Source of the DNA: Mesorhizobium sp. WSM2240
Lineage (GTDB): Bacteria > Pseudomonadota > Alphaproteobacteria > Rhizobiales > Rhizobiaceae
Length of the DNA: 64,000 nt
Reading direction: 5' to 3'
Assembly (NCBI RefSeq): GCF_040438645.1
Contig: NZ_CP159253.1
Span: forward strand, 3,224,001-3,288,000
Shown: in pieces, positions 3,431 through 54,703 of the stretch
Numbering within the stretch: position 1 is the first letter of the stretch
Layout: each line of letters begins with the position of its first letter
Position numbers and translations under genes: made by a program
Notes under the pieces: generated by a model
What the model saw: only the letters and a program-made list of their open reading frames with translations
Database searches by the model: none
What the model was told of the DNA's origin: nothing

Positions 3431-4561
3431 TCAGCCAGCAAACCGCCCGATCGCAAACCGGCTAATGTCGTGCCGCGTCCGGCCGTCGATCGCCAGATCG
3501 GCCAGCACCTCGCCGATGACGCTCGCGAACTTGTAGCCATGGCCCGAGCAGGGCGACGCGATGACGATGCGCGGGTCGGCTGGCGAAAGATCGATGACGA
3601 AATCCTCGTCCGGCGTCTTCGTATAGATGCATGTGCGCATCTTCTTGAGCGAGCCGGCGGCCGCCGGCAGATAGTCTTCGAGGAAATCGTGCATCCGCTT
3701 CTCGTCGGCCGGGCCCGCGTCCTGTCTGGCGTCGCCAGCCTGCGTCCAAGTTCCGCTGCCATGGTGCGAGGCGCATTTGAAGCCGCTGCCCGAGAAATCC
3801 GGAAAGCCGTAGGCGATGTCGTGTTCGCCATCGATTATGAATACCGGCAATTTGCCCAGGCGCACCGCGTCGGGTTCGCGCGGCTCGAACCAGCACAGCA
3901 CCTGCCGGCTGAGCGTCAGGTGCGGCTTCAATTCGGGAACGAGTTCCGCGATCCATGGGCCGGCGGCGATCACCGCGCTTGCGGCTTCGATCACGCGATC
4001 CTGCAGCACGATCCGCACGCCGCTAGAGGTCGGTTCGACGCCAAGCACAGGCGTGTTCACGAGCATTTCCGCGCCCGCCGCCCTTGCCAGCTTCAGATGC
4101 AACGAATTGGCGAGTTCCGGCTGCAGGAAACCGCCATCAGGCTGCCACACGGCAGAATAGTCGTTCGGCAGCGTGAATTGCGGATGACGCTTTGCGATCT
4201 CGCCTGCGGCGAGCACTTCATGCTCCAGGCCATGCATCTGGCTTGCTGCCAGCGACCCCTCGACGATGACGCTGCCCGGTTTGCCGATTTCGAGGACGCC
4301 GGTGACGGTCAGCACCTTTTCTTCGGCGAGCCGTTCCAGTTCTCGCCAGTTCTCATAGGCGCGCCGGGCGAGCGGCACGTAACTGGGATGCTCGAAATAG
4401 CCGAGCCGTATCGCGCGGGACTCGCCATGCGACGAGCCGCGGTCATGGCCGGGCTCGAATTGCTCAATTCCCAGAACCCGCTTTCCCCGTCGCGAAAGAT
4501 GGAACAGCGATGCACTTCCCATCGCGCCCAGGCCGATGACAACAACATCATAGGCGGTCAA
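3431..4561 (-). CDS. solA: Monomeric sarcosine oxidase / N-methyl-L-tryptophan oxidase family
   Basis: A flavoenzyme that oxidises an N-methyl amino acid to the amine plus formaldehyde and hydrogen peroxide. Its 376 residues match the usual length. The N-terminal Rossmann motif is VVVIGLGAMGSA, followed by the flavin-site segment RGSSHGESRAIRLGY. Cys311 in RTCIYTKTPDEDFV is placed as the cysteine that carries covalent FAD in MSOX/SolA, and Lys262 matches the oxygen-activating lysine. The C-terminal GHGYKFASVIGEVLADL block is also typical. It is divergent from the mttB-1 operon, with 116 bp between starts, so the two may share control. Sarcosine, N-methyltryptophan or pipecolate cannot be told apart by eye. 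Confidence 0.88.
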   Translation of the reverse strand: MTAYDVVVIGLGAMGSASLFHLSRRGKRVLGIEQFEPGHDRGSSHGESRAIRLGYFEHPSYVPLARRAYENWRELERLAEEKVLTVTGVLEIGKPGSVIVEGSLAASQMHGLEHEVLAAGEIAKRHPQFTLPNDYSAVWQPDGGFLQPELANSLHLKLARAAGAEMLVNTPVLGVEPTSSGVRIVLQDRVIEAASAVIAAGPWIAELVPELKPHLTLSRQVLCWFEPREPDAVRLGKLPVFIIDGEHDIAYGFPDFSGSGFKCASHHGSGTWTQAGDARQDAGPADEKRMHDFLEDYLPAAAGSLKKMRTCIYTKTPDEDFVIDLSPADPRIVIASPCSGHGYKFASVIGEVLADLAIDGRTRHDISRFAIGRFAG

Positions 4562-4677: not shown

Positions 4678-6252
4678 ATGACCGCTGCCCTTCATCCCGC
4701 CGAACAGGCGCCCGCCGGCCGCGCCCGCCACGGCGGACGTGCCGGCAAGCGCGCAGGCGGCGGATCGGCCTTCGAGCAGCCGCCCTTCCGCCAGCTGAAG
4801 ATTCCGTTCGCCCCGACGAAGATCATTTCCGACGATCAGCTCGAATCGATCCACCTCGCATCGCTGCGAGTGCTCAAGGAGATCGGCGTCGACGTGCTGC
4901 ACGATGAGGCGCGCCGCATCATGAAGGCTCATGGCGCAGATGTGCGCGAGGGCAGCGAGCGCGTTCGCTTCGACAGCGACATGATCCTGGAACTAATCGC
5001 GCATTGCCCGTCCGAATTCACGCTGCATGCCCGCAATCCCGAGCACAATGTCCGTTTTGGGGGCAACAATCTCGTCCTGTCACAGATGGCGTCGGCGCCG
5101 AATTGCTCCGACCTCGACCGCGGCCGCCGGCCAGGCAATCAGGAGGATTTCCGCAACTTCCTGAAACTGGCGCAGATCCACAACATCCTGAATACCACCG
5201 GCGGCTATCCCGTCGAGCCGGTGGATATCCATCCGTCGGTGCGCCATCTCGAATGCATCCGCGATCTGGCGACGCTGACCGACAAGGTGTTTCACATCTA
5301 TTCGCTAGGCAAGGAGCGCAATGTCGACGGCATCGAGATCGCCCGCATCGCTCGCGGCATTTCCCGCGAGCAGCTGCAGGATGAGCCGTCGGTCTACACC
5401 ATCATCAACACCAATTCGCCGCTAAAGCTCGACATTCCTATGCTGGAAGGCATCATCCAGATGTCGGGCAATGGCCAGGTCGTCATCGTCACGCCCTTCA
5501 CACTGTCGGGCGCCATGGCTCCGGTCACCATCGCCGGCGCACTTGTGCAGCAGAATGCCGAAGCGCTGTCCGGTATCGCCTTCGCTCAGATGGTGAAAAA
5601 GGGCGCGCCTGTCGGCTACGGTGGCTTTACCTCCAATGTCGACATGAAGTCGGGCGCGCCGGCTTTCGGCACGCCGGAATACATGAAGGCGCAACTGGTC
5701 GGCGGCCAACTGGCGCGCCGCTACAATATCCCCTACCGCACTTCCAATACATGCGCCGCCAATGCAGTCGACGCGCAGGCTGCCTATGAGAGCGTGTTCT
5801 CGCTATGGGGCGCGATTCAGGCGGGCGCCAACTTCATGCTGCATGGCGCAGGCTGGCTCGAAGGTGGGCTTCGCTGCTCCTACGAAAAGACGATCCTCGA
5901 CATCGATCTCCTGCAGATGGTGGCGGAGTTCCTGACGCCGCTCGACCTGTCGGAGAACGCGCTGGCGGTCGATGCCATCCGCGATGTCGGGCCAGGCGGG
6001 CATTTCTTCGGTACCCAACATACGCAGGACCGCTACAAGACCGCTTTCTATTCGCCGATCATTTCGGACTGGCGCAACTTCGAGACCTGGGCGGAAGCCG
6101 GTTCGCCCACGGCCGCGGAAAAAGCCAATCGCATCTGGAAAGAGCGGTTGGCGACCTACGAAAAGCCCTACATGGACCCGGCAATCGCCGAGGAGTTGGA
6201 TGCCTTTGTCGAAAAGCGCCGGCTCGAAGGCGGCGCGCCGACGGATTTTTGA
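4678..6252 (+). CDS. MttB-family (trimethylamine methyltransferase-like) protein 1, non-pyrrolysine
   Basis: A 524-residue TIM-barrel methyltransferase of the MttB superfamily (COG5598). Members move a methyl group from a quaternary amine to a cob(I)alamin-bound corrinoid protein; the non-pyrrolysine branch includes glycine-betaine, proline-betaine and carnitine enzymes. Supporting blocks are LTDKVFHIYSLGKERN, INTNSPLKLD, VIVTPFTLSGAMAPVT, and the C-terminal CAANAVDAQAAYES and GAGWLEGGL. There is no in-frame TAG, so it is not pyrrolysine-dependent. The ATG at 4678 is chosen because GAGGAAG precedes it; an upstream ATG at 4642 lacks such a site. The N-terminal ~40 residues are Arg/Gly/Ala rich, as in the second copy. 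No corrinoid gene is adjacent, so it presumably uses the one at 22203. The substrate is unknown. Confidence 0.9.
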   Translation: MTAALHPAEQAPAGRARHGGRAGKRAGGGSAFEQPPFRQLKIPFAPTKIISDDQLESIHLASLRVLKEIGVDVLHDEARRIMKAHGADVREGSERVRFDSDMILELIAHCPSEFTLHARNPEHNVRFGGNNLVLSQMASAPNCSDLDRGRRPGNQEDFRNFLKLAQIHNILNTTGGYPVEPVDIHPSVRHLECIRDLATLTDKVFHIYSLGKERNVDGIEIARIARGISREQLQDEPSVYTIINTNSPLKLDIPMLEGIIQMSGNGQVVIVTPFTLSGAMAPVTIAGALVQQNAEALSGIAFAQMVKKGAPVGYGGFTSNVDMKSGAPAFGTPEYMKAQLVGGQLARRYNIPYRTSNTCAANAVDAQAAYESVFSLWGAIQAGANFMLHGAGWLEGGLRCSYEKTILDIDLLQMVAEFLTPLDLSENALAVDAIRDVGPGGHFFGTQHTQDRYKTAFYSPIISDWRNFETWAEAGSPTAAEKANRIWKERLATYEKPYMDPAIAEELDAFVEKRRLEGGAPTDF

Positions 6253-6260
6253 GGTTTGAA

Positions 6261-6644
6261 ATGAAGATGAAGCCAATCAACGCCCCGGACGCCCCGCAAC
6301 CGCTGGGCGGCTATGTCCAGGCGATGGAAGTCACCGGCGCGACGCGAATTCTCTATATCAGCGGCCAGATTCCGGAGACGATCGACGGCAAGGTGCCCGA
6401 ACGCTTCGAGGATCAGGCGCGCCTGGTCTGGCGGAACGTCATTGCGCAGTTGCACGCCGCCGACATGACGCTCGACAACCTGGTCAAGGTGACCATCTTC
6501 CTGTCCGACCGGCAGTATACCGCCGACTACCGCAAAGTCCAGCAGGAGGTGCTCCAAGGCCGGCTGATCGGGCTGACGACGATCATCACCGGCATTTTCG
6601 ACGAAAAATGGCTGCTGGAGATCGAAGCCATCGCCGCCGCCTGA
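6261..6644 (+). CDS. RidA/YjgF-family protein
   Basis: A small cytoplasmic protein of 127 residues in the Rid superfamily. RidA proper hydrolyses reactive enamine/imine intermediates to ketones plus ammonia; other subfamilies have different or unknown activities. The sequence keeps the family core ILYISGQIPE, LVWRNVIAQLHAA and LVKVTIFLSDR, but the end (WLLEIEAIAAA) differs from archetypal RidA, so the catalytic Arg cannot be assigned. It begins 8 bp after the mttB-1 stop and is followed after 47 bp by an amine-oxidising flavoprotein. A role in clearing imines made during amine oxidation is plausible but inferred. Confidence 0.85.
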   Translation: MKMKPINAPDAPQPLGGYVQAMEVTGATRILYISGQIPETIDGKVPERFEDQARLVWRNVIAQLHAADMTLDNLVKVTIFLSDRQYTADYRKVQQEVLQGRLIGLTTIITGIFDEKWLLEIEAIAAA

Positions 6645-6691
6645 CCGGCCTCATTTCCTGAATCGATTTACGCACAAACGGACGCAATTTC

Positions 6692-9268
6692 ATGAAATCC
6701 CACGCAAAAGCGGTTGTCATCGGCGGCGGCGTCGTCGGCGCTTCGGTTCTCTTCCACCTTGCCAGGGCCGGCTGGACCGACGTCATGTTGATCGAGCGCT
6801 CGGAACTGACCTCGGGCTCATCCTGGCATGCAGCAGGCGGCTTCCATACCCTGAACGGCGATCCCAATGTCGCCAAGCTCCAGGCCTACACCGTGCAACT
6901 GTACAAGGAACTGGAGGAGATTTCCGGACAGTCCTGTGGCCTGCATCTCACCGGCGGTGTGATGATGGCCGACACGCCGGAGCGTATGGATTTCCTGCGC
7001 CTGACCCATGCCAAGGGCCGCTATCTCGGCATGGAGACCGAGTTGATCACGCCATCCGAGGCCAAGGCGATGTTCCCGCTGATGGACGAGACGAATTTCG
7101 TCGGCGCCATGTGGGATCCTGTCGAGGGCCATCTCGATCCGTCGGGCACCACACATGCTTACGCCAAGGCGGCGAAGAAGCTCGGCGCCGAAATCGTGCT
7201 GCGCAACCGGGTCGTAGAGCTTACGCAAGAGGTCGACGGCACCTGGAACGTCATCACCGAGCAAGGCACGGTGAAGGCCGAGCATGTCGTGAATTGCGGC
7301 GGCCTGTGGGCGCGCGAGATCGGCCGCATGGCCGGGCTGGAACTGCCGGTGCTCGCGATGGAGCACATGTATCTGCTGACAGAGCCGATGCCGGAGGTCG
7401 AGGAATTCAACCGCTCGACCGGCCGCGAGATGATCGGCGTCATCGACTTCAAGGGCGAGATCTATACCCGGCAGGAGCGCAACGGAGTTTTGCTCGGCAC
7501 CTACGAGAAAGCGGCCAAGCCGTGGTCGCCGGTGGAAACGCCGTGGAGCTTCGGCCATGAATTGCTGGCGCCCGATCTCGATCGCATTGCGCCGTCGCTG
7601 GAAGTCGGCTTCCGCCATTTTCCGGGCATCGAGAAAGCTGGCATCAAGCAGATCATCAACGGCCCCTTCACCTTCGCGCCTGATGGCAACCCGCTGGTCG
7701 GCCCGGTGCAGGGCCTGACCAATTACTGGACCGCCTGCGCCGTCATGGCGGGTTTTTCGCAGGGCGGCGGCGTCGGCCTGGCGCTGTCCAACTGGATGGT
7801 GCACGGCGATCCCGGCTTCGACGTCTGGGGCATGGACGTTGCCCGCTTCGGTGAATGGGCGACGCTGCGCTACACCAACGCCAAGGTGCGCGAAAACTAT
7901 TCTCGCCGCTTCTCGATCCGCTTTCCTAATGAGGAGCTGCCGGCGGCCAGGCCGGCGCAGACGACGCCACTCTACGATACGATGGTGGCAAACAACGCGA
8001 TCATGGGTGATAGCTGGGGTCTCGAAACTCCGCTCTGGTTCGCGCCGAAGGGCACGGAACCCAAGGACATTGTGTCTTTCCATCGCTCCAACGATTTCGA
8101 GCATGTCGGCAATGAAGTGCGCGCGACGCGTGAGCGCGTCGGCGTCACCGAAATCGCCAATTTCGCGAAATACGAAGTCGCCGGACCGGGCGCGGAGGAT
8201 TTCCTCAACCGGCTGATGACCAACCGTATGCCGAAGGCCGGACGCATCGTGCTTACGCCGATGCTGAACGAGTTCGGCAGGCTGATCGGCGACTTCACGA
8301 TCGCCAAAGCGGCGGAAGAGCGCTTCATGATCTTTGGTTCTTCCGCCGCGCAGAAATACCATATGCGCTGGTTCGAACGGCACCTGCCCAAGGACGGCTC
8401 GGTCCGGCTGCACCGCTTCGACCAGACGCTGGTGGGGCTGTCTATCGCCGGCCCACGCGCTCGCGATGTGCTAGCCAAGCTGGTCGATGCCGATGTCTCG
8501 AACAAGGCGTTCCGTTTCATGGACTTCCGCGAGATGGCGGTCGGCGGCGCGCCCTGCATGGTTAACCGCGTCACCTATACCGGCGATCTCGGTTACGAAA
8601 TCTGGATGGCGCCGGCCTATCAGCGGCTGGTCTATGCGGCGATCAAGCAGGCCGGTGAGGAATTCGGCATCGTCGATTTTGGCATGCGCGCGCTGCTGTC
8701 GATGCGGCTCGAGAAGAACTTTCCGACATGGTTCCGCGAGTTGCGGCCGATCTACGGCGTGTTCGAAGGTTCGATGGACCGCTTCATCAAGCTGGACAAG
8801 AACGATTTCATCGGCCGCGAGCAGGCGGCCAAGGAGCAGGCGGAAGGCCCGAAACTGCGCCGCGTTTCCTTCGTGGTCGATGCCGTCGATGCCGATGTGA
8901 TGGGCGATGAGCCAATCTGGGCGAAGATTTCGACCGACTATGGCACGGTCGAGAAGCCGCACGGCTTCGGCGCGCCGCGGTTCGACACCGGCGGCAAAGA
9001 GGTACGCGGGTCGGTAGCGGCCAACGGCAATGATTCCTCCGGCATCCGCGGCATTGTCGATGGAGATTGGCGGGTGGTCGGCTGGGTCACGTCCGGCGGC
9101 TACGCGCACTACGTCCAGAAATCCATGGCGCAGGGCTATGTCCCGGCAGCCCTTGCCGAAAACGAGAGCGAGGGCATGTTCGAGATCGAGATTCTCGGGC
9201 GCCGGCGGCCGGCCCGCATCAACATTGCCCCGCCCTTCGACCCGAGCGGCGAAAAGATGCGAAGCTGA
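6692..9268 (+). CDS. FAD-dependent dimethylglycine/sarcosine dehydrogenase-like, GcvT fusion (copy 1)
   Basis: An 858-residue fusion of an N-terminal DAO-type FAD domain and a C-terminal GcvT-like folate domain, the layout of dimethylglycine and sarcosine dehydrogenases. These oxidise an N-methyl group and pass the one-carbon unit to THF as methylene-THF. The dinucleotide motif GGGVVG is at residues 11-16. WHAAG at 45-49 carries His46, the position of the covalent flavin His in relatives. The C-terminal half has the GcvT signature pieces YTGDLGYEIWM and DFGMRALLSMRLEKNF. It lies in the mttB-1 operon and could act on the product of MttB demethylation. Substrate choice is inferred. Confidence 0.88.
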   Translation: MKSHAKAVVIGGGVVGASVLFHLARAGWTDVMLIERSELTSGSSWHAAGGFHTLNGDPNVAKLQAYTVQLYKELEEISGQSCGLHLTGGVMMADTPERMDFLRLTHAKGRYLGMETELITPSEAKAMFPLMDETNFVGAMWDPVEGHLDPSGTTHAYAKAAKKLGAEIVLRNRVVELTQEVDGTWNVITEQGTVKAEHVVNCGGLWAREIGRMAGLELPVLAMEHMYLLTEPMPEVEEFNRSTGREMIGVIDFKGEIYTRQERNGVLLGTYEKAAKPWSPVETPWSFGHELLAPDLDRIAPSLEVGFRHFPGIEKAGIKQIINGPFTFAPDGNPLVGPVQGLTNYWTACAVMAGFSQGGGVGLALSNWMVHGDPGFDVWGMDVARFGEWATLRYTNAKVRENYSRRFSIRFPNEELPAARPAQTTPLYDTMVANNAIMGDSWGLETPLWFAPKGTEPKDIVSFHRSNDFEHVGNEVRATRERVGVTEIANFAKYEVAGPGAEDFLNRLMTNRMPKAGRIVLTPMLNEFGRLIGDFTIAKAAEERFMIFGSSAAQKYHMRWFERHLPKDGSVRLHRFDQTLVGLSIAGPRARDVLAKLVDADVSNKAFRFMDFREMAVGGAPCMVNRVTYTGDLGYEIWMAPAYQRLVYAAIKQAGEEFGIVDFGMRALLSMRLEKNFPTWFRELRPIYGVFEGSMDRFIKLDKNDFIGREQAAKEQAEGPKLRRVSFVVDAVDADVMGDEPIWAKISTDYGTVEKPHGFGAPRFDTGGKEVRGSVAANGNDSSGIRGIVDGDWRVVGWVTSGGYAHYVQKSMAQGYVPAALAENESEGMFEIEILGRRRPARINIAPPFDPSGEKMRS

Positions 9269-9277
9269 GATATTGCG

Positions 9278-10648
9278 ATGGCCGAACGAAGCACAGCGGG
9301 AGGGTTCGGCCGCCACCGCAAGATCATGCCGTTCGAACACGGCGACGGCACCGGCGGGATTTCCGACCTCCACCGCCAGTCCCGCGAGAAGGCGGCCTCG
9401 CTCAACCAGCATGCTCTCGGCTATGGCGAAACCGCCGAAGCCGAGTGGCGCGCGGCCGGCATTGCCGACCCCGACCTGCCGGCCATGCGCAAATACCGAC
9501 TGGAACGCATCCGTGCTGAACTGAAGCGCCGCGACTATGCCGGCGCGCTCCTCTATGATCCCGTCAACATCCGCTACGCCACCGATAGCACCAACATGCA
9601 GCTCTGGGTCGCGCACAATCCGACCCGCCATTGCTTCGTCGCCACCTACGGACCGGTGGTGCTGTTCGATTATTTTTCCTGCGAGCATCTCTCGGATCAT
9701 TCGGGGGTGGTGGACGAGGTGCGTCCTGCCGTTTCGTGGATTTATCTCTACGGCGGCGAACTGTCGGTCAAGCGCGTGCAGCGATGGGCGGCCGGCATCG
9801 CCGATCTGATCCGGGAGCATGGCGGCGGAAACAAGCACATTGCTGTCGACCATATCGATCATGAGGGCGTCGCGGAGCTTGCCCGGCTCGGAGTGTCGGT
9901 CGGCAATGGTGAGGCCGTTATGGAGAATGCGCGGTTGATAAAATCACCCGACGAGATTCTCTGCATGCGCCGCGCCATCGTCTCCTGCGAGGCCGCGATG
10001 GCCGAGATGGAGGCTGCGCTGAAACCGAGCATTTCGGAAAACGAGCTGTGGGCGGAACTGCATCGCGGCAACATCGCCCGCGGCGGCGAATGGATCGAGA
10101 CGCGGCTGCTGTCGTCCGGTCCGCGCACCAATCCGTGGTTCCAGGAGTGCTCGTCGCGGATGATCGAAGCCGGCGACCTCGTCGCCTTCGACACGGACCT
10201 GATCGGCCCCCACGGCTTCTGCGCCGATCTGTCTCGCACCTGGTTGTGCGGCGACGTCAAACCGACCGACGAACAGCGCGACCTGTTCCGCATCGCCGCC
10301 GACCAGATCGCGTTCAACATCGATCTGATGCGCCCCGGCACATCGTTTCGCGACCTCGTCGAATGCTCAAAGATTCCGCCAGCGGACTGTTTTCCGGCGC
10401 GCTACGGCGTGCTTTATCATGGCGTCGGGCTGGCCGACGAATACCCGACCCTGCCGCATGCCGGTGACTGGACCGATGACACGCCGGACGGCGTGCTCGA
10501 ACCAGGGATGGTGCTGTGCGTCGAAAGCTATATCGGCCGGCTCGGCGGGCGCGAAGGCGTCAAGATCGAGGAGCAGGTGCTGATCACCGAAACCGGACCC
10601 GAGCAGCTTTCGCGCTACCCGCTCGATGCGGGGCTCATCGCCGGCTGA
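9278..10648 (+). CDS. M24-family metalloprotein, DddP-like (DMSP lyase/creatinase fold)
   Basis: A 456-residue creatinase/aminopeptidase-P fold protein, most like DMSP lyase DddP, which splits dimethylsulfoniopropionate into DMS and acrylate. From memory of DddP, its metal ligands are Asp295, Asp297, Asp307, His371, Glu406 and Glu421. The equivalents here are Asp305, Asp307, Asp317, His381, Glu416 and Glu431, a constant +10 offset. The proposed catalytic Tyr366 and Asp377 also match Tyr376 and Asp387. Shared blocks include RYATDSTNMQLW and GGEWIETRLLSSGPRTNPWF. It starts 9 bp after the FAD-GcvT gene. A hydrolase or lyase acting on a betaine-like compound is an alternative. It overlaps the convergent downstream gene by 34 bp. 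Confidence 0.75.
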   Translation: MAERSTAGGFGRHRKIMPFEHGDGTGGISDLHRQSREKAASLNQHALGYGETAEAEWRAAGIADPDLPAMRKYRLERIRAELKRRDYAGALLYDPVNIRYATDSTNMQLWVAHNPTRHCFVATYGPVVLFDYFSCEHLSDHSGVVDEVRPAVSWIYLYGGELSVKRVQRWAAGIADLIREHGGGNKHIAVDHIDHEGVAELARLGVSVGNGEAVMENARLIKSPDEILCMRRAIVSCEAAMAEMEAALKPSISENELWAELHRGNIARGGEWIETRLLSSGPRTNPWFQECSSRMIEAGDLVAFDTDLIGPHGFCADLSRTWLCGDVKPTDEQRDLFRIAADQIAFNIDLMRPGTSFRDLVECSKIPPADCFPARYGVLYHGVGLADEYPTLPHAGDWTDDTPDGVLEPGMVLCVESYIGRLGGREGVKIEEQVLITETGPEQLSRYPLDAGLIAG

Positions 10649-11448: not shown

Positions 11449-11494
11449 GCGCTCATATCGACTGCTGAATGGGGCAGATGCAAGCCGCTGCAGC

Positions 11495-12508: not shown

Positions 12509-12729
12509 GCGCTCGACCACTACCCCAGTCGCCGGAGTGCAAATCACTCCTGACATGAGATTGTCAGCAGGGCCGGCCAACTTCAACGAGACAACGCGCA
12601 CAGTGTGTTGATATTGCGCATCTTCAGCAGCAGATGTTATGAATTGTAAACAAACGTGCGAATTTTTGTTCCGCCGCGGGCGGGATGTATGGCCTTCAAA
12701 GAAATTTTTGACCCGATCGGGAGGTGAAA

Positions 12730-13674: not shown

Positions 13675-14697
13675 ATGACCAATCCGATCGACGCGCTGCT
13701 GGCCGAAAAGGGCGTCCTGCTCGCGGACGGCGCGACGGGCACCAATCTGTTCGGCATGGGCCTGGAAGCCGGCGAAGCGCCGGAACTCTGGAACGAAACC
13801 GCTCCGGAAAAGATCACAGCGCTGCACCAGAATTTCGTCGACGCCGGCGCCGACATCATCCTCACCAATTCTTTCGGCGGCACCCGTCACCGGCTGAAGC
13901 TGCATCATGCGCAGGACCGGGTGCACGAGTTGAACAAGCGCGCGGCCGAGATTGCACGAAGCGTCGCCGACAAGGCCGGGCGCAAGGTCATCGTCGCGGG
14001 CTCCGTCGGCCCGACCGGCGAACTGCTCCAGCCGCTCGGCGCGATGACCTATGACGAGGCGGTCGACGCCTTTTCCGAGCAGATAAGAGGCCTGAAGGAA
14101 GGCGGCGCCGAAATCGCCTGGATCGAGACAATGTCCGCGCCTGACGAAGCCAAGGCCGCCGCGCAGGCGGCGATCGACGCGGGCATGCCTTACACCTACA
14201 CGGTTTCGTTCGACACCGCCGGCCGCTCGATGATGGGCCTTGCGCCGAAAGACATTCACGGCGTCGCCGAAGGGCTTCCCGAAAAGCCGGTCGCGGTCGG
14301 CGCCAATTGCGGCGTCGGCGCGTCCGACATCCTGTCGTCGCTGCTGGATATGACCGGCGCCAAGCCGGAGGCGACGGTGATCGTCAAGGGAAATTGCGGC
14401 ATCCCGGAGTTTCGCGGCACGGAAATCCATTATTCCGGCACGCCGGAACTGATGGCCGACTACGTCAGGCTGGCGGTTGATGGCGGCGCAAAGATCGTCG
14501 GCGGCTGCTGCGGCACCTCGTTCCAGCATCTTGCGGCGATGCGCCATGCGCTCGACGCGCACCGGAAGTCGGCCCGCCCGACGGTCGAAACGATCGTCGA
14601 GCGCATCGGCCCGCTGCGCAACAAGACCGCCGACAAGAGCGGCGGCACCGGGGAAACCGCGGACGCGCGACGCGAGCGCCGCCGCGCACGGGCCTGA
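13675..14697 (+). CDS. Betaine-homocysteine S-methyltransferase-like enzyme
   Basis: A zinc-dependent methyltransferase of 340 residues that transfers a methyl group from a donor (betaine in named relatives) to homocysteine, giving methionine. The N-terminal LLADGATGTNLF and ILTNSFGG are family blocks. The zinc cysteines lie in VGANCGVGAS and GGCCGTS. The Arg-rich tail of ~30 residues (ending RRERRRARA) is unusual and resembles the basic tails on the corrinoid methyltransferase and RACo proteins of this window. The operator-like palindrome 30 bp upstream links it to the gene at 28775. It may consume betaine directly or drain methyl groups from the corrinoid network. Confidence 0.87.
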   Translation: MTNPIDALLAEKGVLLADGATGTNLFGMGLEAGEAPELWNETAPEKITALHQNFVDAGADIILTNSFGGTRHRLKLHHAQDRVHELNKRAAEIARSVADKAGRKVIVAGSVGPTGELLQPLGAMTYDEAVDAFSEQIRGLKEGGAEIAWIETMSAPDEAKAAAQAAIDAGMPYTYTVSFDTAGRSMMGLAPKDIHGVAEGLPEKPVAVGANCGVGASDILSSLLDMTGAKPEATVIVKGNCGIPEFRGTEIHYSGTPELMADYVRLAVDGGAKIVGGCCGTSFQHLAAMRHALDAHRKSARPTVETIVERIGPLRNKTADKSGGTGETADARRERRRARA

Positions 14698-14725
14698 TAC
14701 CGGTCCGGACTCCGGTCCCTCCTCG

Positions 14726-15902: not shown

Positions 15903-15955
15903 CGGCTTTCTCCCATTCGGATCGAAAGGATATCACGGCCAAACTCGACGCAATC

Positions 15956-15991
15956 AAAAAAGGCCGGCGGGGACAAACGCCCTCGCCGGCC
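15956..15991 (-). terminator. Rho-independent terminator of the vWA/sigma operon
   Basis: On the minus strand an 8-bp G+C stem (GGCCGGCG pairing with CGCCGGCC at 15984-15991 and 15962-15969) is followed by a run of six T residues. It lies 73 bp downstream of the vWA gene stop. Confidence 0.85.
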
Positions 15992-20048: not shown

Positions 20049-20050
20049 TG

Positions 20051-23141: not shown

Positions 23142-23783
23142 ATGACGACCACGCGCAAAGGCAGACAAAACAAGGACGAAAAGCTGCTGGTCATCGCCTG
23201 CGGCATGCTCGCGCGTGAGGTGCTCGCCGTGAAGGAGCAGTTGGCGCTCAACCATCTCGAACTGACCTGCCTGCCGGCCGAGTTCCACTACTATCCCGAC
23301 AGAATTCCGCCTGCCATGGACAAGGCGATCACCGAGGCGAAGGCGGAAGGCTACAGCCGCATCTTCGTCGGATACGCCGATTGCGGAACCGGCGGGATGC
23401 TCGATGCAGTTTGCGAGAAACACGGCGTCGAGCGCATGGCCGGCGCGCATTGCTTTGCCTTTTATCAGGGCAACGCCGCCTTCGAGGCAGCCGGCGACCG
23501 CGACATGCTGGCCTTCTACATGACCGATTTTCTGTGCCGGCAGTTCGAGGCGTTCTTCATCAAGCCGCTCGGCCTCGATCGCCATCCCGAACTCGCCGCG
23601 GACTATTTCGGAAATTACGAGAAGCTCGTCTATCTCGCGCAGACGGACAATCCCGAACTGGACAAGGTCGCCGAAGAAGCAGCCGAAATGCTCGGCCTCG
23701 CCTATGAAAAGCGCTTCACCGGCTACGGCGATTTGCCCCCGGCGTTGGAGAAGGCGGCATCGACATCCGGGAGAGCAGTATGA
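23142..23783 (+). CDS. DUF1638 domain protein
   Basis: A 213-residue soluble protein of the DUF1638 family. The N-terminal LLVIACGMLAREVLAVKEQL and the block GYADCGTGGMLDAVCEKHGV are characteristic, and conserved Cys residues (CGM, DCGTGG) suggest a metal or cofactor site. The family recurs beside MttB and corrinoid proteins, but no activity is established as far as I know. Here it follows the corrinoid gene in the same direction with only the small antisense lipoprotein between. It overlaps the next gene by 4 bp. A role in corrinoid or methyl transfer is inferred from context alone. Confidence 0.85.
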   Translation: MTTTRKGRQNKDEKLLVIACGMLAREVLAVKEQLALNHLELTCLPAEFHYYPDRIPPAMDKAITEAKAEGYSRIFVGYADCGTGGMLDAVCEKHGVERMAGAHCFAFYQGNAAFEAAGDRDMLAFYMTDFLCRQFEAFFIKPLGLDRHPELAADYFGNYEKLVYLAQTDNPELDKVAEEAAEMLGLAYEKRFTGYGDLPPALEKAASTSGRAV

Positions 23784-29815: not shown

Positions 29816-31915
29816 ATGAACCCGCCCCCGAACATAACCGACCCTCTGGTCCTGTTCATGCCGTCCGGCAAGCGCGGGCGGTTCCCGGTCGGCACGCCGA
29901 TCCTCGATGCCGCGCGCTCGCTGGGCGTCTATGTGGAAAGCGTGTGCGGTGGGCGCGCGACGTGCGGGCGCTGTCAGGTCGAGGTTCAGCAAGGCAATTT
30001 CGCCAAGCACAAGATCGTCTCTTCCAACGACCACATCTCGCCGAAGGGCGCCAAGGAAGAGCGCTATGAGCGCGTTCGCGGCCTGGCCGACGGACGCCGC
30101 CTCTCCTGCTCCTCGATGATCCTCGGCGATCTGGTGATCGACGTCCCGCAGGACACGGTCATCAACGCGCAAACCATCCGCAAGGCCGCGACCGATCGTG
30201 TCATCGAACGCAATGCCGCGGTGCAGCTCTGCTATGTCGAAGTCGACGAGCCCGATATGCATAAGCCGCTTGGCGATCTCGATCGCCTGAAAGCGGCGCT
30301 GGAGAAGGACTGGGGCTGGAAGGACCTGCTGATCTCGCCGCACCTGATCCCGCGGGTCCAGAAAATCCTGCGGACCAAGCTGCCGAACCAGCCGGAGCTG
30401 AGCGAAGGCAAATGGGGCGTCACGGCGGTCGTCCACCGCGACATGGACTCGTCGCGGCCCTTCATCATCGATCTGTTCCCGGGGCTGAAAAACGAAGCCT
30501 ACGGCATTGCCTGCGACATCGGCTCGACGACGATCGCAATGCACCTGGTTTCGCTGCTGTCGGGCCGCATCGCCGCTTCCTCCGGCACATCGAACCCACA
30601 GATCCGCTTCGGCGAGGATCTGATGAGCCGCGTCTCCTACGTGATGATGAACCCGGACGGCCGCGAGGCGATGACGCAGGCCGTGCGCGAGGCGGTCAAC
30701 GGGCTGATCGGCAAGGTCTGCAAGGAAGGCAATGTCGACCGCCACGACATTTTCGACTGCGTCTTCGTCGGCAATCCGATCATGCACCATCTGTTCCTCG
30801 GCATCGATCCGACCGAACTCGGGCAGGCCCCCTTCGCACTGGCGGTCTCCGGCGCGCTGCAATACTGGGCGCACGAGATCGACATCGACGTCAATCGCGG
30901 CGCGCGGCTCTATCTGTTGCCCTGCATCGCCGGCCATGTCGGGGCGGATGCCGCCGGCGCGACGCTGTCGGAAGGCCCTTATCGTCAGGACAGCATGATG
31001 CTTCTGGTCGATGTCGGCACCAATGCCGAGATCGTGCTCGGCAACCGGGACCGTGTAGTCGCCGCCTCCTCTCCGACCGGGCCGGCCTTCGAAGGCGCCG
31101 AGATCTCGTCCGGCCAGCGCGCGGCGCCCGGCGCGATCGAACGCGTGCGCATCGATCCGGAAACGCTGGAGCCCAAATACCGCGTCATCGGTTCGGAACT
31201 CTGGTCGGACGAAGCCGGATTCGAAGAAGCCGTCCGGGCAACGGGCGTCACCGGCATCTGCGGCTCGGCGATCATCGAAGTGGTCGCGGAAATGTATCTT
31301 TCCGGTATCATTTCGGAAGACGGCGTCATCGACGGTGCGCTGGCCGGGAGAAGCCCGCGCATCATCCAGAACGGGCGGACTTTCTCCTATCTGCTGCGTG
31401 ACGGCGAGCCCCGGCTGACTGTGATGCAGAACGACGTGCGCGCCATCCAGCTCGCCAAAGCCGCGCTCTATGCTGGCGTCAAGCTTTTGATGGAAAAGCA
31501 GGGCATCGACCATGTCGACACGATCCGCTTTGCCGGCGCCTTCGGCTCATTCATCGACCCGAAATACGCGATGGTGCTGGGCCTGATCCCCGATTGCGAC
31601 CTGGCCGAGGTCAAGGCTGTCGGCAACGCCGCCGGTACAGGCGCGCTGATGGCGCTCCTGAACCGTAACCACCGCCGCGAGATCGAACAGGCAGTGAACC
31701 GGATCGAAAAGATCGAGACCGCGCTCGAGCCGAATTTCCAGCAGATCTTCATCAACGCCATGGCGCTGCCCAACAAGGTCGATCCGTTCCCGAAGCTCGG
31801 CAGCCAGGTCAAGCTGCCGCCGCGAAAGACCGTCGGCGAGAGCGGCGTGGCCGGCGACGCGACACCGCGCCGGCGCTCGCGCGAGGATCGCGACGCACGG
31901 CGCTCCAGAGGATAG
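29816..31915 (+). CDS. RACo-type reductive activator of corrinoid proteins (2Fe-2S + ASKHA ATPase)
   Basis: A 699-residue protein that uses ATP to drive one-electron reduction of inactive cob(II)alamin back to cob(I)alamin. The N-terminal ferredoxin-like domain has cysteines 44, 50, 53 and 98 (ESVCGGRATCGRC and LSCSSM). The C-terminal DUF4445/ASKHA region has CDIGSTTIAM, LVDVGTNAEIVLGN and TGICGSAIIEV nucleotide-site blocks, then FAGAFGSFIDPKYA. The tail is basic. An aerobe especially needs such an activator because Co(I) oxidises readily. It starts 66 bp after the methyltransferase gene and is likely cotranscribed. Electron donor unknown; no dedicated ferredoxin reductase is adjacent. Confidence 0.93.
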   Translation: MNPPPNITDPLVLFMPSGKRGRFPVGTPILDAARSLGVYVESVCGGRATCGRCQVEVQQGNFAKHKIVSSNDHISPKGAKEERYERVRGLADGRRLSCSSMILGDLVIDVPQDTVINAQTIRKAATDRVIERNAAVQLCYVEVDEPDMHKPLGDLDRLKAALEKDWGWKDLLISPHLIPRVQKILRTKLPNQPELSEGKWGVTAVVHRDMDSSRPFIIDLFPGLKNEAYGIACDIGSTTIAMHLVSLLSGRIAASSGTSNPQIRFGEDLMSRVSYVMMNPDGREAMTQAVREAVNGLIGKVCKEGNVDRHDIFDCVFVGNPIMHHLFLGIDPTELGQAPFALAVSGALQYWAHEIDIDVNRGARLYLLPCIAGHVGADAAGATLSEGPYRQDSMMLLVDVGTNAEIVLGNRDRVVAASSPTGPAFEGAEISSGQRAAPGAIERVRIDPETLEPKYRVIGSELWSDEAGFEEAVRATGVTGICGSAIIEVVAEMYLSGIISEDGVIDGALAGRSPRIIQNGRTFSYLLRDGEPRLTVMQNDVRAIQLAKAALYAGVKLLMEKQGIDHVDTIRFAGAFGSFIDPKYAMVLGLIPDCDLAEVKAVGNAAGTGALMALLNRNHRREIEQAVNRIEKIETALEPNFQQIFINAMALPNKVDPFPKLGSQVKLPPRKTVGESGVAGDATPRRRSREDRDARRSRG

Positions 31916-39464: not shown

Positions 39465-42026
39465 TCAGGTCCGCGGTTTCAGACTCTCCGGGTCGTAGAG
39501 CGGCTTGTAGCCGACCGCAGCGACCTCGACCGGATAGGTCTCGCCGAAATATTCGACAGCCAACCTGCGGCCCTCTTGGCAGTACGCCCATGGAAGGTAG
39601 GCGAGCGCGATGTTCTTGCCGATGGTCGGGCCGTAGGCGACCGAGGTGGTGAAGGAGCGGCGGCCGAGTTCGTCGACCAGCGCCTCACCGGTTTCGGGGT
39701 CCATCACCGGCATCGTGCCGACAGGATAGCGGGCGATGCCCTTGGAATCCCGATTGTCCGTCATGACCAGTGTGCAGAGCATGGCCGGCTGATGTTCGCG
39801 GGCGCGGTACTCCAGATGCTTTTCTTTGCCGCGGAAATCGGCCTCCTTGACCTTCGGGCGTGCAAGATCGGCCTCCAGCAGATTGTACTCGGTCAGCAGG
39901 TCAGCATTCTGCAGGCGCAGGCTCTTTTCCATGCGGCGCGAGTTGGCGTAGGTCTCGACGCCGAACGCCATTACGCCGGTCGACCGCAGCGCGTCCCAGA
40001 CGGCAAGCCCGTCCTCGTAGCGCATGTGCAGTTCCCAGCCCTGCTCTCCGACATAGGAGATGCGGAAGGCCGTCACATCCTTGCCTGCGATCCTGATCGG
40101 CTTGATAGCGGCGAAGGCAAAATTCTCCGGCGAGAGCCCGTCCGGGTTCTCGACGACCTTCTGCAGCGTCGTACGTGCGTTCGGTCCCCAGATGCCGATG
40201 GTGACGTATTTTTCGGTCACATCGGTGACCGTAACGTTGAAACCTTTGTCTTCCGCCACCCTGCGGATGTAGTGGAAGTCGCGCGGCCCGGCGTCCGCGC
40301 CGTCAATCACGCGGCAGCGGTCGGCCATGCGGATCACGGTGAGATCCGCGCGCACCATGCCCTCGTCATCGAGGAAATGCGTGTAGATGCCCTTGCCGAT
40401 ATTTGCGTCGCCGCCGATCTTCGCTGCGCACAGCCACTCCATCAGCGCGACATGGTCCGGGCCTTCGACATCGATGATGGCGAAATGCGACAGGTTCACG
40501 ATGCCGCAATCCTCGCTCATGGCGAGATGCTCGGCATTGGAGACGCGCCAAAAATGGCGGTTGTCCCACTCGTTTTCGCGCACCGGCACGCGGTTGCCGT
40601 ACTTTTCCAGCAGATGCTCGTTGGCGGCATAGCCATGGGCGCGCTCCCAGCCGCCCAGTTCCATGAAGTATCCGCCGAGTTCCTTCTCGCGCTCGAAGAA
40701 TGGCGAGCGGCGAATGCTACGGCCCTTGGAGAAGGGCTCGCGCGGATGCACCGCCGGATTGTAGACTTTCTGCGCCGTCTCCGTGCAGCGGTCCCAGATG
40801 AACTGCTCCGTCGTCTGATGCGGATAGAAGCGGGCGTAATCGATCTGGTGGTGGTCGATTTCGGTGCGCCCATCCGTCATCCAGTCGGCAATGAGCTTGC
40901 CCATGGCGGGACCGTCCTTGACCCAGATCGCGACGGCGTACCAGAGCCCCCTCACCTTCTGGCTCTCGCCCATGGAGGGGCCGCCATCCGTTGTCACCTG
41001 CAGCAGCCCGTTGAAGGAATGGCTCTCATTGTAGCCCAGTTCGGCCAGGATCGGCGTCAGCTCCATGGCGCGTTCGAGCGGCTCGATGATCTGCTCCATG
41101 TCAAGGTCGCGCTGCGAGGGCGAAAGGCGAGCCTGGTTCTTCTCCAGAATGTCGCGCGGATGGCAGAGGCGCGGGTTGGTCTCTTCGTAATAGCCCCACT
41201 CGATCTGCCCGCCTTCAGCGGTCTTGGGATCGCCGGTGTCGCGCATATAGGCCGAGTTGCCCTGGTCGCGCAGCAGCGGCCAGCCGATCTCCTTGCCGGT
41301 ACCGGCGAACTCGGTATAGGGGCCGAAGAAGGTGAGCGGGTGGTCGATCGGCATCACCGGCAGGTCCTCGCCCGCCATTTCCGCGATTAGCCGGCCCCAG
41401 ATACCGGCGCAGACCACCACATAATCCGCTTCGATTGTGCCACGGTCGGTCACCACGCCCTTGATGCGGCCGTTCTCGATGACGAGCGACCTGGCGGACG
41501 TGTTTGCGAAGGCCTTGAGCTTTCCGGAGGCCTCCGCCTGGTCGACCAGCTTGCCTGCAACCGTCTGCGAACGCGGGATGACGAGACCGGCATCGGGATC
41601 CCACAGGCCGCCCTGCACCATCTGTTCTTCGATCAGCGGGAATTTTTCCTTGATCTCGGCCGGCTCGATCAGGCGCGCACGAGTACCGAAGGCCTTCGCC
41701 GAGGCCACCTTCCGTTTGATCTCCTCCATGCGATCATCGTCGCCGACGCGCGCGACCTCGAGCCCACCGATGCGCGCGTAGTGACCCATCTTCTCGTAGA
41801 AATCGATGGAATAGAGCGTCGTCCAGCAGGACAGGAAGTCGTGGCTGGTCGTGTAGCAGAAGTCGGAGGCATGCGCTGTCGAGCCTATGTCGGTCGGGAT
41901 GCCGGACTTGTCGATACCGACGATATCGTCCCAGCCGCGCTCGATCAGATGATGGGCGACGGATGCGCCGACAATACCGCCCAGCCCGATGACGACGACT
42001 TTCGCTCTTGACGGAAACTCTGCCAT
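39465..42026 (-). CDS. FAD-dependent oxidase/dehydrogenase with GcvT domain (copy 2)
   Basis: An 853-residue DAO+GcvT fusion, more diverged than copies 1 and 3. The dinucleotide motif GLGGIVG is at residues 14-20. The flavin-linkage block, WHAAG in the others, is GSTAHASDF here, with His52 kept. The central region LLQVTTDGGPSMGESQKVRG and the C-terminal YVGEQGWELHMRYEDGLAV confirm the GcvT half. It should remove an N-methyl group and hand it to folate, perhaps from a different substrate. The perfect repeat 68 bp upstream (42094-42110) matches the putative regulator core. Confidence 0.85.
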   Translation of the reverse strand: MAEFPSRAKVVVIGLGGIVGASVAHHLIERGWDDIVGIDKSGIPTDIGSTAHASDFCYTTSHDFLSCWTTLYSIDFYEKMGHYARIGGLEVARVGDDDRMEEIKRKVASAKAFGTRARLIEPAEIKEKFPLIEEQMVQGGLWDPDAGLVIPRSQTVAGKLVDQAEASGKLKAFANTSARSLVIENGRIKGVVTDRGTIEADYVVVCAGIWGRLIAEMAGEDLPVMPIDHPLTFFGPYTEFAGTGKEIGWPLLRDQGNSAYMRDTGDPKTAEGGQIEWGYYEETNPRLCHPRDILEKNQARLSPSQRDLDMEQIIEPLERAMELTPILAELGYNESHSFNGLLQVTTDGGPSMGESQKVRGLWYAVAIWVKDGPAMGKLIADWMTDGRTEIDHHQIDYARFYPHQTTEQFIWDRCTETAQKVYNPAVHPREPFSKGRSIRRSPFFEREKELGGYFMELGGWERAHGYAANEHLLEKYGNRVPVRENEWDNRHFWRVSNAEHLAMSEDCGIVNLSHFAIIDVEGPDHVALMEWLCAAKIGGDANIGKGIYTHFLDDEGMVRADLTVIRMADRCRVIDGADAGPRDFHYIRRVAEDKGFNVTVTDVTEKYVTIGIWGPNARTTLQKVVENPDGLSPENFAFAAIKPIRIAGKDVTAFRISYVGEQGWELHMRYEDGLAVWDALRSTGVMAFGVETYANSRRMEKSLRLQNADLLTEYNLLEADLARPKVKEADFRGKEKHLEYRAREHQPAMLCTLVMTDNRDSKGIARYPVGTMPVMDPETGEALVDELGRRSFTTSVAYGPTIGKNIALAYLPWAYCQEGRRLAVEYFGETYPVEVAAVGYKPLYDPESLKPRT

Positions 42027-53128: not shown

Positions 53129-54388
53129 ATGGCGGAATATTCGGCCCTTTCGCTTCTCAAAAACGCGCTGACGGGAAACCGCGACTGGAAGCCGGCCTGG
53201 CGAAAGCCGGACCCGAAACCTTCCTATGACGTGATTGTCGTCGGAGGCGGCGGTCACGGCCTCTCGACAGCCTATTACCTGGCCAAGGAACACGGCATCA
53301 CCAATGTCGCCGTCGTGGAAAAGGGATGGCTGGGGTCCGGCAATGTCGGCCGCAACACAACAATCGTGCGCTCCAACTACCTGTATCCGCAGAGCATCCG
53401 CTTCTACGAGCACTCGATGCGGCTGTGGGAGAACCTGTCGCACGACCTCAACTACAATGTGATGTTCTCGCAGCGCGGCATCCTCAACCTCGCCCATACG
53501 CCGGCCCAGTTCGACGACTACGCGCGCCGCGGCAACGCTATGCGTCACGGCGGCGGCGACGCCGAACTGCTCAATCCCGACCAGATCGCCAGGCTCTATC
53601 CCGGTCTCGACGTCTCGGCTTCGGCGAGGTTCCCGGTGGTAGGTGGGCTGCTGCAGCCCAAGGCCGGCACGGCGCGCCATGACGCCGTGGCCTGGGGCTA
53701 TGCCCGCGGCGCGGACCGGCGGGGCGTCGACATCATCGAGAATTGCGAGGTCACTGGCTTCCTGCGCGACGGCGACCGCATCACCGGCGTAACTACGAGC
53801 CGGGGTGAAATCCGCGCCGCCAAGGTGGCGGTGGCAGTGGCGGGCAGTACTGGCCACGTCATGAAGCTAGCCGGGATCGACAAGCTGCCGATCGAAAGCC
53901 ATCTGCTGCAGGCGTTCGTGTCGGAATCGCTGAAGCCGATCCTGCCCGGCGTCATCACCTGGGGCGGCGGACATCTTTACGTCTCGCAGTCCGACAAGGG
54001 CGGGCTGGTCTTCGGCGGCGACCTCGACGGCTACAATAGCTATGCGCAGCGCGGAAACCTGCCGCTGGTCGAGGAGGTGATGAGCGAATTGCTCGCCATG
54101 TTCCCGGCCTTTGCTCGGGTAAGGCTGCTGCGCTCCTGGGGCGGCGTCATGGACATGTCGATGGACGGCTCGCCGATCATCACCACCGGCCCCCTGCCCG
54201 GCATGTATCTGAATTGCGGCTGGTGCTACGGCGGCTTCAAGGCGACGCCGGCTTCCGGCTGGTGCTTTGCCCACACCATAGCCCGCGACGAACCGCACGA
54301 GATCAATGCGCCGTTCACGCTCGACCGTTTCCATCGCGGCATACTCATCGACGAAAAAGGCCAGGGCCCGACGCCCAAGCTTCATTAG
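53129..54388 (+). CDS. soxB: Sarcosine oxidase subunit beta
   Basis: A 419-residue flavoprotein, the catalytic beta subunit of heterotetrameric sarcosine oxidase. The complex oxidises sarcosine to glycine with transfer of the methyl carbon to THF and formation of H2O2. The Rossmann motif is VIVVGGGGHGLSTAYYLA. His184 in TARHDAVAWGYARGA is the position of the covalent FMN His. The RNTTIVRSNYLYP block is diagnostic. GGAAGA precedes the ATG. First gene of soxBDAG. Confidence 0.96.
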   Translation: MAEYSALSLLKNALTGNRDWKPAWRKPDPKPSYDVIVVGGGGHGLSTAYYLAKEHGITNVAVVEKGWLGSGNVGRNTTIVRSNYLYPQSIRFYEHSMRLWENLSHDLNYNVMFSQRGILNLAHTPAQFDDYARRGNAMRHGGGDAELLNPDQIARLYPGLDVSASARFPVVGGLLQPKAGTARHDAVAWGYARGADRRGVDIIENCEVTGFLRDGDRITGVTTSRGEIRAAKVAVAVAGSTGHVMKLAGIDKLPIESHLLQAFVSESLKPILPGVITWGGGHLYVSQSDKGGLVFGGDLDGYNSYAQRGNLPLVEEVMSELLAMFPAFARVRLLRSWGGVMDMSMDGSPIITTGPLPGMYLNCGWCYGGFKATPASGWCFAHTIARDEPHEINAPFTLDRFHRGILIDEKGQGPTPKLH

Positions 54389-54400
54389 GCACATCAGCAG

Positions 54401-54703
54401 ATGCTCATAAATTGTCCTTATTGCGGCCCGCGCGACCTTTCAGAATTCAGCTATCAGGGCGACGGCTACCGCACCCGTCCCGATCCGGCCTCGACCGACC
54501 AGGCCGAGTGGAACGCCTATGTCTACGACCGGGTCAACGTGGCAGGCGACCACAACGAGATCTGGCAGCATGCAGGCGGCTGCCGGGCGCATCTGCGGGT
54601 CACGCGCAACACGCTGACCCACAAGATCACCAGCGTCGGTTTTGCCCGCGACGAACGCCACAAAAAGCCGCACGGCCACCGCCGGACGGGAGCGCATTCA
54701 TGA
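54401..54703 (+). CDS. soxD: Sarcosine oxidase subunit delta
   Basis: A 100-residue zinc-binding subunit. LINCPYCGPRDLSEF carries the Cys-x2-Cys pair and IWQHAGGCRAHLRVTRNT the partner His and Cys. Length is usual. It starts 12 bp after soxB and overlaps soxA by 4 bp. It has a structural role in the tetramer. Confidence 0.95.
   Translation: MLINCPYCGPRDLSEFSYQGDGYRTRPDPASTDQAEWNAYVYDRVNVAGDHNEIWQHAGGCRAHLRVTRNTLTHKITSVGFARDERHKKPHGHRRTGAHS

What the first reader, a model, noticed from the sequence alone, without database searches (positions are those of the whole stretch)
4678..10648. An undescribed four-gene operon: MttB, RidA, FAD-GcvT flavoprotein and DddP-like M24 enzyme
Spacings of 8, 47 and 9 bp suggest one transcript. 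It combines a corrinoid-type demethylase, an imine-handling protein, an oxidative demethylase and a lyase/hydrolase of the DddP fold. I do not know of a described pathway with this set. A plausible reading is stepwise breakdown of one multi-methylated molecule: MttB removes one methyl, the flavoprotein removes others, the M24 enzyme splits the carbon skeleton, and RidA clears an imine.
Basis: inference. Interest (0 to 1): 0.8.

Follow-up and report, generated by a model that had tools for sequence, protein, structure and literature searches.

The report
Betaine-demethylation operon with DddP-like enzyme
A Mesorhizobium-like bacterium carries a gene set that probably strips methyl groups one by one from a quaternary amine such as a plant betaine, and a relative of the marine DMSP-cleaving enzyme DddP, with no known substrate, often travels with that set.

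Summary
The four genes, coordinates and spacings (8, 47, 9 bp) are confirmed. The conserved core is not the four-gene set but an MttB plus FAD-GcvT pair: 82 of 88 family genomes with the MttB orthologue have the flavoprotein downstream. The M24 gene is present in 45 of those 82 and recurs with the pair in Roseibium, Ahrensia, Kiloniella and Rhodobiaceae loci. The Rid-like gene is a local extra (5 of 60 loci) and lacks the RidA arginine in all 7 copies seen. The M24 protein keeps the published DddP metal and catalytic residues but misses the DddP family cut-off and lies in another clade than a solved DMSP lyase. The window also supplies what MttB needs: the genome's only methyltransferase-type corrinoid protein found, MtgD-, MtgE-, RACo-, DUF1638- and MetF2-like genes, SolA, sarcosine oxidase genes and two more FAD-GcvT genes. 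That module is published (PMC12478193), which also proposes that several MttB proteins share one MtgC; its main text does not contain M24 or DddP. Best reading: stepwise demethylation of a quaternary amine, with a DddP-fold metalloenzyme as accessory. The substrate and the M24 reaction are unproven.

The parts
4678..6252 (+). MttB1, non-pyrrolysine MttB-superfamily methyltransferase (524 aa)
   Evidence: PF06253 667.6 bits; open frame without amber codon; PDB relatives 4yyc 383 bits, glycine betaine methyltransferase 9yce 330 bits
6261..6644 (+). Rid-like protein (127 aa), Leu in place of the RidA Arg105
   Evidence: PF01042 71.2 bits; alignment; residue check in 7 copies, 5 Leu and 2 Met
6692..9268 (+). 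FAD-GcvT flavoprotein of the dimethylglycine dehydrogenase type (858 aa)
   Evidence: DAO, FAO_M, GCV_T, GCV_T_C; human DMGDH 5l46 574.6 bits
9278..10648 (+). DddP-like M24 metalloenzyme (456 aa)
   Evidence: 4rzy 368.5 bits; 44% identity over 408 columns, Trp110, Asp305, Asp307, Asp317, Tyr376, His381, Asp387, Glu416, Glu431 aligned with DddP residues 95, 295, 297, 307, 366, 371, 377, 406, 421
3431..4561 (-). SolA, divergent from MttB1 (116 bp apart): N-methyltryptophan oxidase family
   Evidence: NF008425 449.8 bits, cut-off 257; also divergent from MttB1 in 5 of 60 loci
13675..14697 (+). MtgE-like homocysteine methyltransferase (annotated betaine-homocysteine methyltransferase)
   Evidence: NF005718 564.3 bits, cut-off 338; second-best MetH-model piece in the genome
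20370..21953 (-). MttB2, the better MtgB (glycine betaine) candidate
   Evidence: 4yyc 951 bits, 2qne 427 bits, 9yce 425.8 bits
22146..22898 (+). MtgC-like corrinoid protein
   Evidence: B12-binding and B12-binding_2; NF047996 214 bits, below its cut-off of 370; only methyltransferase-type one of three PF02310 matches
23142..23783 (+). DUF1638 protein
   Evidence: PF07796 88 bits
27309..28694 (+). MetF2-like methylenetetrahydrofolate reductase family protein
   Evidence: PF02219 109.5 bits
28760..29749 (+). MtgD-like methyl-THF:corrinoid methyltransferase
   Evidence: NF005719 393.5 bits, cut-off 259
29816..31915 (+). RACo/RamA-type corrinoid activase
   Evidence: RACo_C_ter 297 bits, Raco_middle, RACo_linker, Fer2
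39465..42026 (-). second FAD-GcvT flavoprotein
   Evidence: GCV_T, DAO, FAO_M, GCV_T_C
53129..58273 (+). sarcosine oxidase genes: DAO protein 53129-54388 (SoxB candidate), SoxA 54214-57693, SoxG 57686-58273
   Evidence: DAO 240.3 bits; TIGR01372 1473.9 bits, cut-off 1164; PF04268 30.8 bits, cut-off 21
60497..62947 (+). third FAD-GcvT flavoprotein
   Evidence: DAO, GCV_T, GCV_T_C, FAO_M

Best explanation
The operon is a stepwise N-demethylation unit that plugs into the one-carbon machinery encoded in the same window. MttB1 moves one methyl from a quaternary amine (probably a betaine other than, or besides, glycine betaine) to the Co(I) of the MtgC-like corrinoid protein. The MtgD-like protein passes it to tetrahydrofolate, or the MtgE-like protein to homocysteine. 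The FAD-GcvT enzyme oxidises a methyl of the resulting tertiary (perhaps also secondary) amine to methylene-THF; SolA or sarcosine oxidase can take the last one. The M24 protein is an accessory dinuclear-metal enzyme with a DddP-type active site that acts on a zwitterionic substrate or product of the same route by C-N (or C-S) bond cleavage. The Rid-like protein is a lineage-specific extra and probably not an RidA deaminase. Shown: gene order, conservation, families, active-site residues, presence of the corrinoid module, no MetH or MetE above cut-off in the genome. Inferred: one transcript, direction of methyl flow, substrate class, the M24 reaction.
For: MttB1 and FAD-GcvT adjacent in 82 of 88 genomes; 45 of the 82 also carry M24; M24 has FAD-GcvT upstream on the same strand within 15 kb in 49 of 55 genomes; 46 of 80 named M24 loci have both. 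Neighbour context is clustered on the M24 tree (14 label changes against 28.7 in shuffles, near-copies help this). M24 keeps the DddP metal ligands and catalytic residues (residues named in passages of PMC4108388). The corrinoid module is in the window, and a Ruegeria version of it demethylates glycine betaine and makes methionine (PMC12478193). SolA divergent from MttB1 here and in 5 of 60 loci.
Against: No substrate evidence. FAD-GcvT at 75% or more also stands without MttB1 in 7 of 40 fetched regions (two of these at contig ends), so it is not tied to one substrate. M24 is missing from 37 of 82 pair genomes, and 23 of 80 named M24 loci have neither partner on the same strand. In G211 the MttB1 gene lies on another contig than FAD and M24. 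An M24 paralogue in this genome sits beside a hydrolase and an Opp-type binding protein, not beside demethylases. The MtgC-like protein is below the NCBIfam MtgC cut-offs.
Confidence: 0.55

Rival explanations
1. Ordinary glycine betaine catabolism with redundancy: MttB1 is a second MtgB, FAD-GcvT is dimethylglycine dehydrogenase, and M24 is a hydrolase that feeds N-methylglycines into the same node.
For: The paper on Ruegeria found two MttB proteins raised on glycine betaine, choline and carnitine. FAD-GcvT is closest to DMGDH and sarcosine oxidase genes are in the window. An M24 paralogue at 43% in this genome neighbours a GbdR-like regulator and a hydrolase whose best PDB match is N-carbamoylsarcosine amidohydrolase.
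Against: MttB2 beside the corrinoid gene is the better MtgB match (427 against 330 bits). M24 resembles DddP (368.5 bits) far more than creatinases (23.7-30.9 bits) and keeps the DddP base.
Confidence: 0.25
2. The M24 gene is a passenger: only the MttB1 plus FAD-GcvT pair works together, and M24 has an unrelated role such as peptide cleavage.
For: The neighbours keep their order with or without M24. Within the genus M24 diverges more than its operon partners (76% against 87-97%). A glycosyltransferase-like gene sits between FAD and M24 in some Mesorhizobium.
Against: M24 recurs with MttB and FAD-GcvT in other orders and lineages (Roseibium, Ahrensia, Kiloniella, Rhodobiaceae), and a second M24 type lies between the pair in G050, G169 and G283. 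Gene order M24 next to the pair survives insertions.
Confidence: 0.13
3. M24 is a true DMSP lyase (DddP), and the operon handles DMSP.
For: Metal ligands, Tyr366 and Asp377 conserved.
Against: 464.8 bits against a cut-off of 600; RlDddP falls in another clade with SH-aLRT 100. FAD-GcvT and MttB partners act on methylated amines in the known cases.
Confidence: 0.05

Closest known systems
MtgBCDE glycine betaine demethylase and split methionine synthase of Ruegeria pomeroyi, with RamA, DUF1638 and MetF2 (PMC12478193, parts 1-4 of 6 seen)
   Same: Counterparts of MtgB, C, D, E, RamA, DUF1638 and MetF2 are all in this window; no MetH or MetE above cut-off in the genome. The paper already proposes several MttB proteins on one MtgC.
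   Different: Here a second, distinct MttB is paired with a FAD-GcvT and an M24 gene; the main text has no occurrence of M24, peptidase, DddP or RidA.
DddP DMSP lyase (RlDddP 4rzy, RdDddP 4b28)
   Same: Fold family, nine checked active-site residues, 44% identity to RlDddP over 408 columns
   Different: Below the family cut-off, separate clade, demethylase gene context
Dimethylglycine dehydrogenase (human 5l46, rat 4p9s)
   Same: Domain order over residues 2-844; WHAAG histidine identical (its role as covalent FAD site is recalled)
   Different: 858-residue bacterial form with an extra stretch before the last matched segment (query 745-793 unmatched); substrate untested
Non-pyrrolysine MttB enzymes MtgB, MtpB, MtcB, MtyB, MthB
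   Same: PF06253, no amber codon, dedicated corrinoid partner
   Different: Aerobic alphaproteobacterial host; substrate unknown; the listed enzymes were seen in passages only
RidA imine deaminases
   Same: PF01042 fold
   Different: Arg105 replaced by Leu or Met in 7 of 7 copies

Membership tests
DddP DMSP lyase | NCBIfam NF043017 curated cut-off of 600 bits | tested here: not met
   464.8 bits
DddP DMSP lyase | Six metal ligands plus Tyr366 and Asp377 | tested here: met
   All identical in the window protein; among 108 rows Asp377 in 102, Tyr366 in 108 (residues named)
DddP DMSP lyase | Same clade as characterised DddP | tested here: not met
   RlDddP in a 7-row clade (SH-aLRT 100), window in a separate 19-row clade (99); one reference only, a fragment on a long branch, quick search
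DddP DMSP lyase | DMS release from DMSP | not testable with these tools
   Needs the enzyme
Creatinase / ectoine hydrolase (M24) | Closest similarity to creatinase or DoeA | tested here: not met
   Creatinases 23.7-30.9 bits, DoeA model 42.9 bits, against 368.5 and 464.8 for DddP
MttB superfamily | PF06253 domain over most of the protein | tested here: met
   667.6 bits, residues 17-518 of 524
MttB superfamily | Cognate corrinoid protein and methyl acceptor enzymes in the genome | tested here: met
   MtgC-, MtgD-, MtgE- and RACo-like genes in the window
MtgB (glycine betaine methyltransferase) | Glycine betaine as substrate | tested here: inconclusive
   MttB1 matches MtgB structures less well than MttB2 does (330 against 427 bits); no pocket comparison made
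Dimethylglycine dehydrogenase | DAO, FAO_M, GCV_T and GCV_T_C domains in that order | tested here: met
Dimethylglycine dehydrogenase | Oxidation of dimethylglycine | not testable with these tools
   Needs the enzyme
RidA imine deaminase | Active-site arginine (Arg105, recalled) | tested here: not met
   Leu or Met in 7 of 7 copies
SolA N-methyltryptophan oxidase | NCBIfam NF008425 curated cut-off of 257 bits | tested here: met
   449.8 bits
MtgBCDE split methionine synthase and betaine demethylase | Separate corrinoid, pterin, homocysteine and MttB modules, no full MetH | tested here: met
   Five MetH-model matches, none over cut-off; the best three are the MtgC-, MtgE- and MtgD-like genes of this window; one MetE-model match at 68.7 bits, cut-off 929.95

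The most novel reading that the evidence does not exclude
A betaine-degrading route that couples corrinoid demethylation, folate-linked oxidative demethylation and a DddP-type metal-dependent elimination on one zwitterionic onium carboxylate, so that the large group of DddP-like M24 proteins outside the DMSP-lyase clade would be betaine lyases rather than DMSP lyases or peptidases.
Probability: 0.2. Interest if true: 0.75.

Novelty: new variant of a known kind. Interest (0 to 1): 0.5.

Why it matters
Many DddP-like M24 proteins carry names such as Xaa-Pro dipeptidase, and one is named DddP in a Mycolicibacterium (which scored 7999 relatives and was capped there). This gene context ties one clade of them to quaternary-amine demethylation and, through the shared corrinoid protein, to methionine synthesis. 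It makes the function of that clade testable with a short list of betaines, and could show how Mesorhizobium and its kin use plant or algal betaines as methyl, carbon and nitrogen sources.

Tried and rejected
Rejected: M24 as a true DddP (score and clade); as creatinase or ectoine hydrolase (scores); Rid as RidA (arginine lost); the four-gene set as the conserved unit (Rid rare, M24 optional). A guess that the substrate is hypaphorine, from the SolA neighbour, found no support: one search listed 12 of 210 papers and the word hypaphorine occurs in none of the 12. Rfam scan of the window: no match at gathering threshold. Ticak 2014, wanted for MtgB pocket residues, is not held, and passages of PMC12155760, PMC8604678 and PMC9842639 gave none, so the MttB1 pocket was not compared. 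Clustering of all ORFs without a coding filter was too noisy and was redone with a codon-position filter. Gene models in other genomes come from that simple rule, not from a gene finder. No structure prediction was run.

Dropped before counts or otherwise to be told: one partial MttB row (G095, 78%, residues 133-524; FAD-GcvT is next to it) was left out. In one search, 10 of 55 genomes with M24 lack the MttB1-FAD pair at the cut-offs used. Some of the 37 pair genomes counted as lacking M24 hold a more distant copy (for example G283, 44%). In one search, 63 of 98 labelled rows were used: 6 with short contigs were dropped and close Mesorhizobium-type rows were thinned to 1 in 6. In one search, L077 (Kiloniella) counts as 'none' although MttB and FAD-GcvT lie beside it on the other strand. 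Of 40 fetched family regions 3 are the same records as named loci. The Fisher values are not probabilities, since genomes are related. The 108 rows include repeats of the same record.
Full report
Observation. No terminator-like site on that strand lies in a gap. The genome is Mesorhizobium-like: the same-genus genome G001 has a contig of the same length (289,122 bases) as the Mesorhizobium camelthorni record that gave L066. The four genes show dN/dS of 0.04-0.24 against two relatives.

What is conserved. I anchored 80 named loci on the M24 gene (the best 80 of 584) and searched 297 genomes of the family for FAD-GcvT, M24 and MttB1. Of the 80 named loci, 46 have MttB1 and FAD-GcvT on the same strand, 1 MttB1 alone, 4 FAD-GcvT alone, 6 were too short and 23 had neither; one of the 23, Kiloniella L077, has both on the other strand. 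In the family set 88 genomes have MttB1 at 75% or more; 82 of them have FAD-GcvT (75% or more) downstream on the same strand, median gap 111 bp; 45 of the 82 hold M24 at 59% or more, 37 do not. Of 55 genomes with that M24, 49 have FAD-GcvT upstream on the same strand within 15 kb, two of them (G179, G292) a 66-68% copy. Rid was found in 6 of 80 named loci, and in 5 of 60 loci with MttB1 at 70% or more. So the pair is the core, M24 a frequent partner and Rid a local extra. PhnD-like, desaturase, XRE and MtgE-like genes mostly keep their places whether or not M24 is there. In some Mesorhizobium a glycosyltransferase-like gene lies between FAD-GcvT and M24, so the order survives interruption.

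The M24 enzyme. Its best solved relatives are DddP enzymes (368.5 bits; creatinases 23.7-30.9), with 44% identity to RlDddP over 408 columns. The six metal ligands and Tyr366 and Asp377 named in PMC4108388 (passages) are present, as is Trp95 (its role recalled). Among 108 rows Asp377 is kept in 102 and Trp95 in 103. It misses the DddP cut-off. On a 63-row tree RlDddP sits in a 7-row clade (SH-aLRT 100) of which 5 rows have neither partner and 1 has MttB, while the window's 19-row clade (99) has FAD-GcvT near every row and MttB near all but 2. Limits: one DddP reference, a fragment on a long branch, and a quick search. A second M24 type, 43% identical and with Trp95 to Phe and Asp377 to Gly, lies between MttB1 and FAD-GcvT in G050, G169 and G283. 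Two M24 types in one kind of operon argue for a real functional link; the loss of the base in the second type shows that the chemistry need not be the same.

The demethylases. MttB1 has no in-frame amber codon and matches MtgB less well than MttB2 does (330 against 427 bits). MttB2 is the near twin of structure 4yyc (951 bits; from Sinorhizobium meliloti by recall) and lies beside the corrinoid gene, so it is the better MtgB candidate and MttB1 may have another substrate. FAD-GcvT is of the dimethylglycine dehydrogenase type, but at 75% or more it also stands without MttB1 in 7 of 40 fetched regions, two of them at contig ends. SolA, above its curated cut-off, is divergent from MttB1 here and in 5 of 60 loci.

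The island. The same window encodes an MtgC-like corrinoid protein, DUF1638, MetF2-, MtgD- and MtgE-like proteins and a RACo-type activase, sarcosine oxidase genes and two more FAD-GcvT enzymes. The genome has three B12-binding domains by PF02310; the other two belong to methylmalonyl-CoA mutase and a radical SAM protein. So the five MttB proteins must share one carrier, which is what PMC12478193 proposes for genomes with up to seven. MetH and MetE models do not reach their cut-offs; the three best MetH pieces are the MtgC-, MtgE- and MtgD-like genes of this window. This fits the dual glycine betaine demethylase and methionine synthase of PMC12478193 (parts 1-4 of 6 and two term searches), where MtgC and MtgD mutants lose both functions.

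Mechanism. Most likely MttB1 to MtgC to MtgD (methyl-THF, then MetF2) or to MtgE (methionine); then FAD-GcvT to methylene-THF; then SolA or sarcosine oxidase. The M24 step is the open one. A DddP-type site is thought to bind a carboxylate at the metals and to place a base near the alpha carbon, which would suit a small onium carboxylate, the same class as MttB substrates; that is inference. Against elimination, an M24 paralogue in this genome (43%) sits with a GbdR-like regulator, a hydrolase whose best PDB match is N-carbamoylsarcosine amidohydrolase, and an Opp-type binding protein, which favours hydrolysis.

Novelty. The corrinoid part is known. The repeated tie of MttB and FAD-GcvT to a DddP-like M24 clade does not show in the listings of seven searches of a library that lacks most subscription journals; most listed papers were not opened. 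I call it a new variant of a known kind.

Noticed in passing
window 13675-31915: Counterparts of a complete MtgCDE, RamA, DUF1638 and MetF2 corrinoid module plus MttB2, in a genome without MetH or MetE above cut-off.
   Followed up: yes
window 39465-42026 and 53129-63849: Two further FAD-GcvT genes, sarcosine oxidase genes and a second homocysteine S-methyltransferase-like gene (62944-63849): much of the 64 kb looks like a demethylation island.
   Followed up: partly
L144, L145, L146 (G283, G050, G169): A second M24 type with Trp95 to Phe and Asp377 to Gly lies between MttB1 and FAD-GcvT; in G050 and G169 both M24 types flank the flavoprotein.
   Followed up: partly
window 9278-10648 against L066: Within the genus M24 is only 76% identical while operon partners are 87-97% and MtgE 99%; it is 87% identical to the copy in L148 (another genus), which hints at replacement in one line.
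   Followed up: partly
L160:1326-5508 (G000:C1 about 3483825-3488007): The same genome has a second MttB plus FAD-GcvT pair (46% and 60% identical) near an Opp/Dpp-type fused ATPase gene.
   Followed up: no
L159:3040-7571 (G000:C1 about 1865039-1869570): Another MttB (56% to MttB2) followed by an Opp-type binding protein and an enolase-superfamily protein.
   Followed up: no
L162:3001-7950 (G000:C1 about 1356500-1361449): The M24 paralogue lies between a GbdR-like regulator gene and genes for an isochorismatase-fold hydrolase and an Opp-type binding protein.
   Followed up: partly
window 10615-13581: A PhnD-like protein, a fatty-acid-desaturase-family protein and an XRE regulator keep their place beside the operon in many genomes, with or without M24; their role is unknown.
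   Followed up: partly
window 42202-43968: A 588-residue ORF with no Pfam or NCBIfam match, next to the second FAD-GcvT gene.
   Followed up: no
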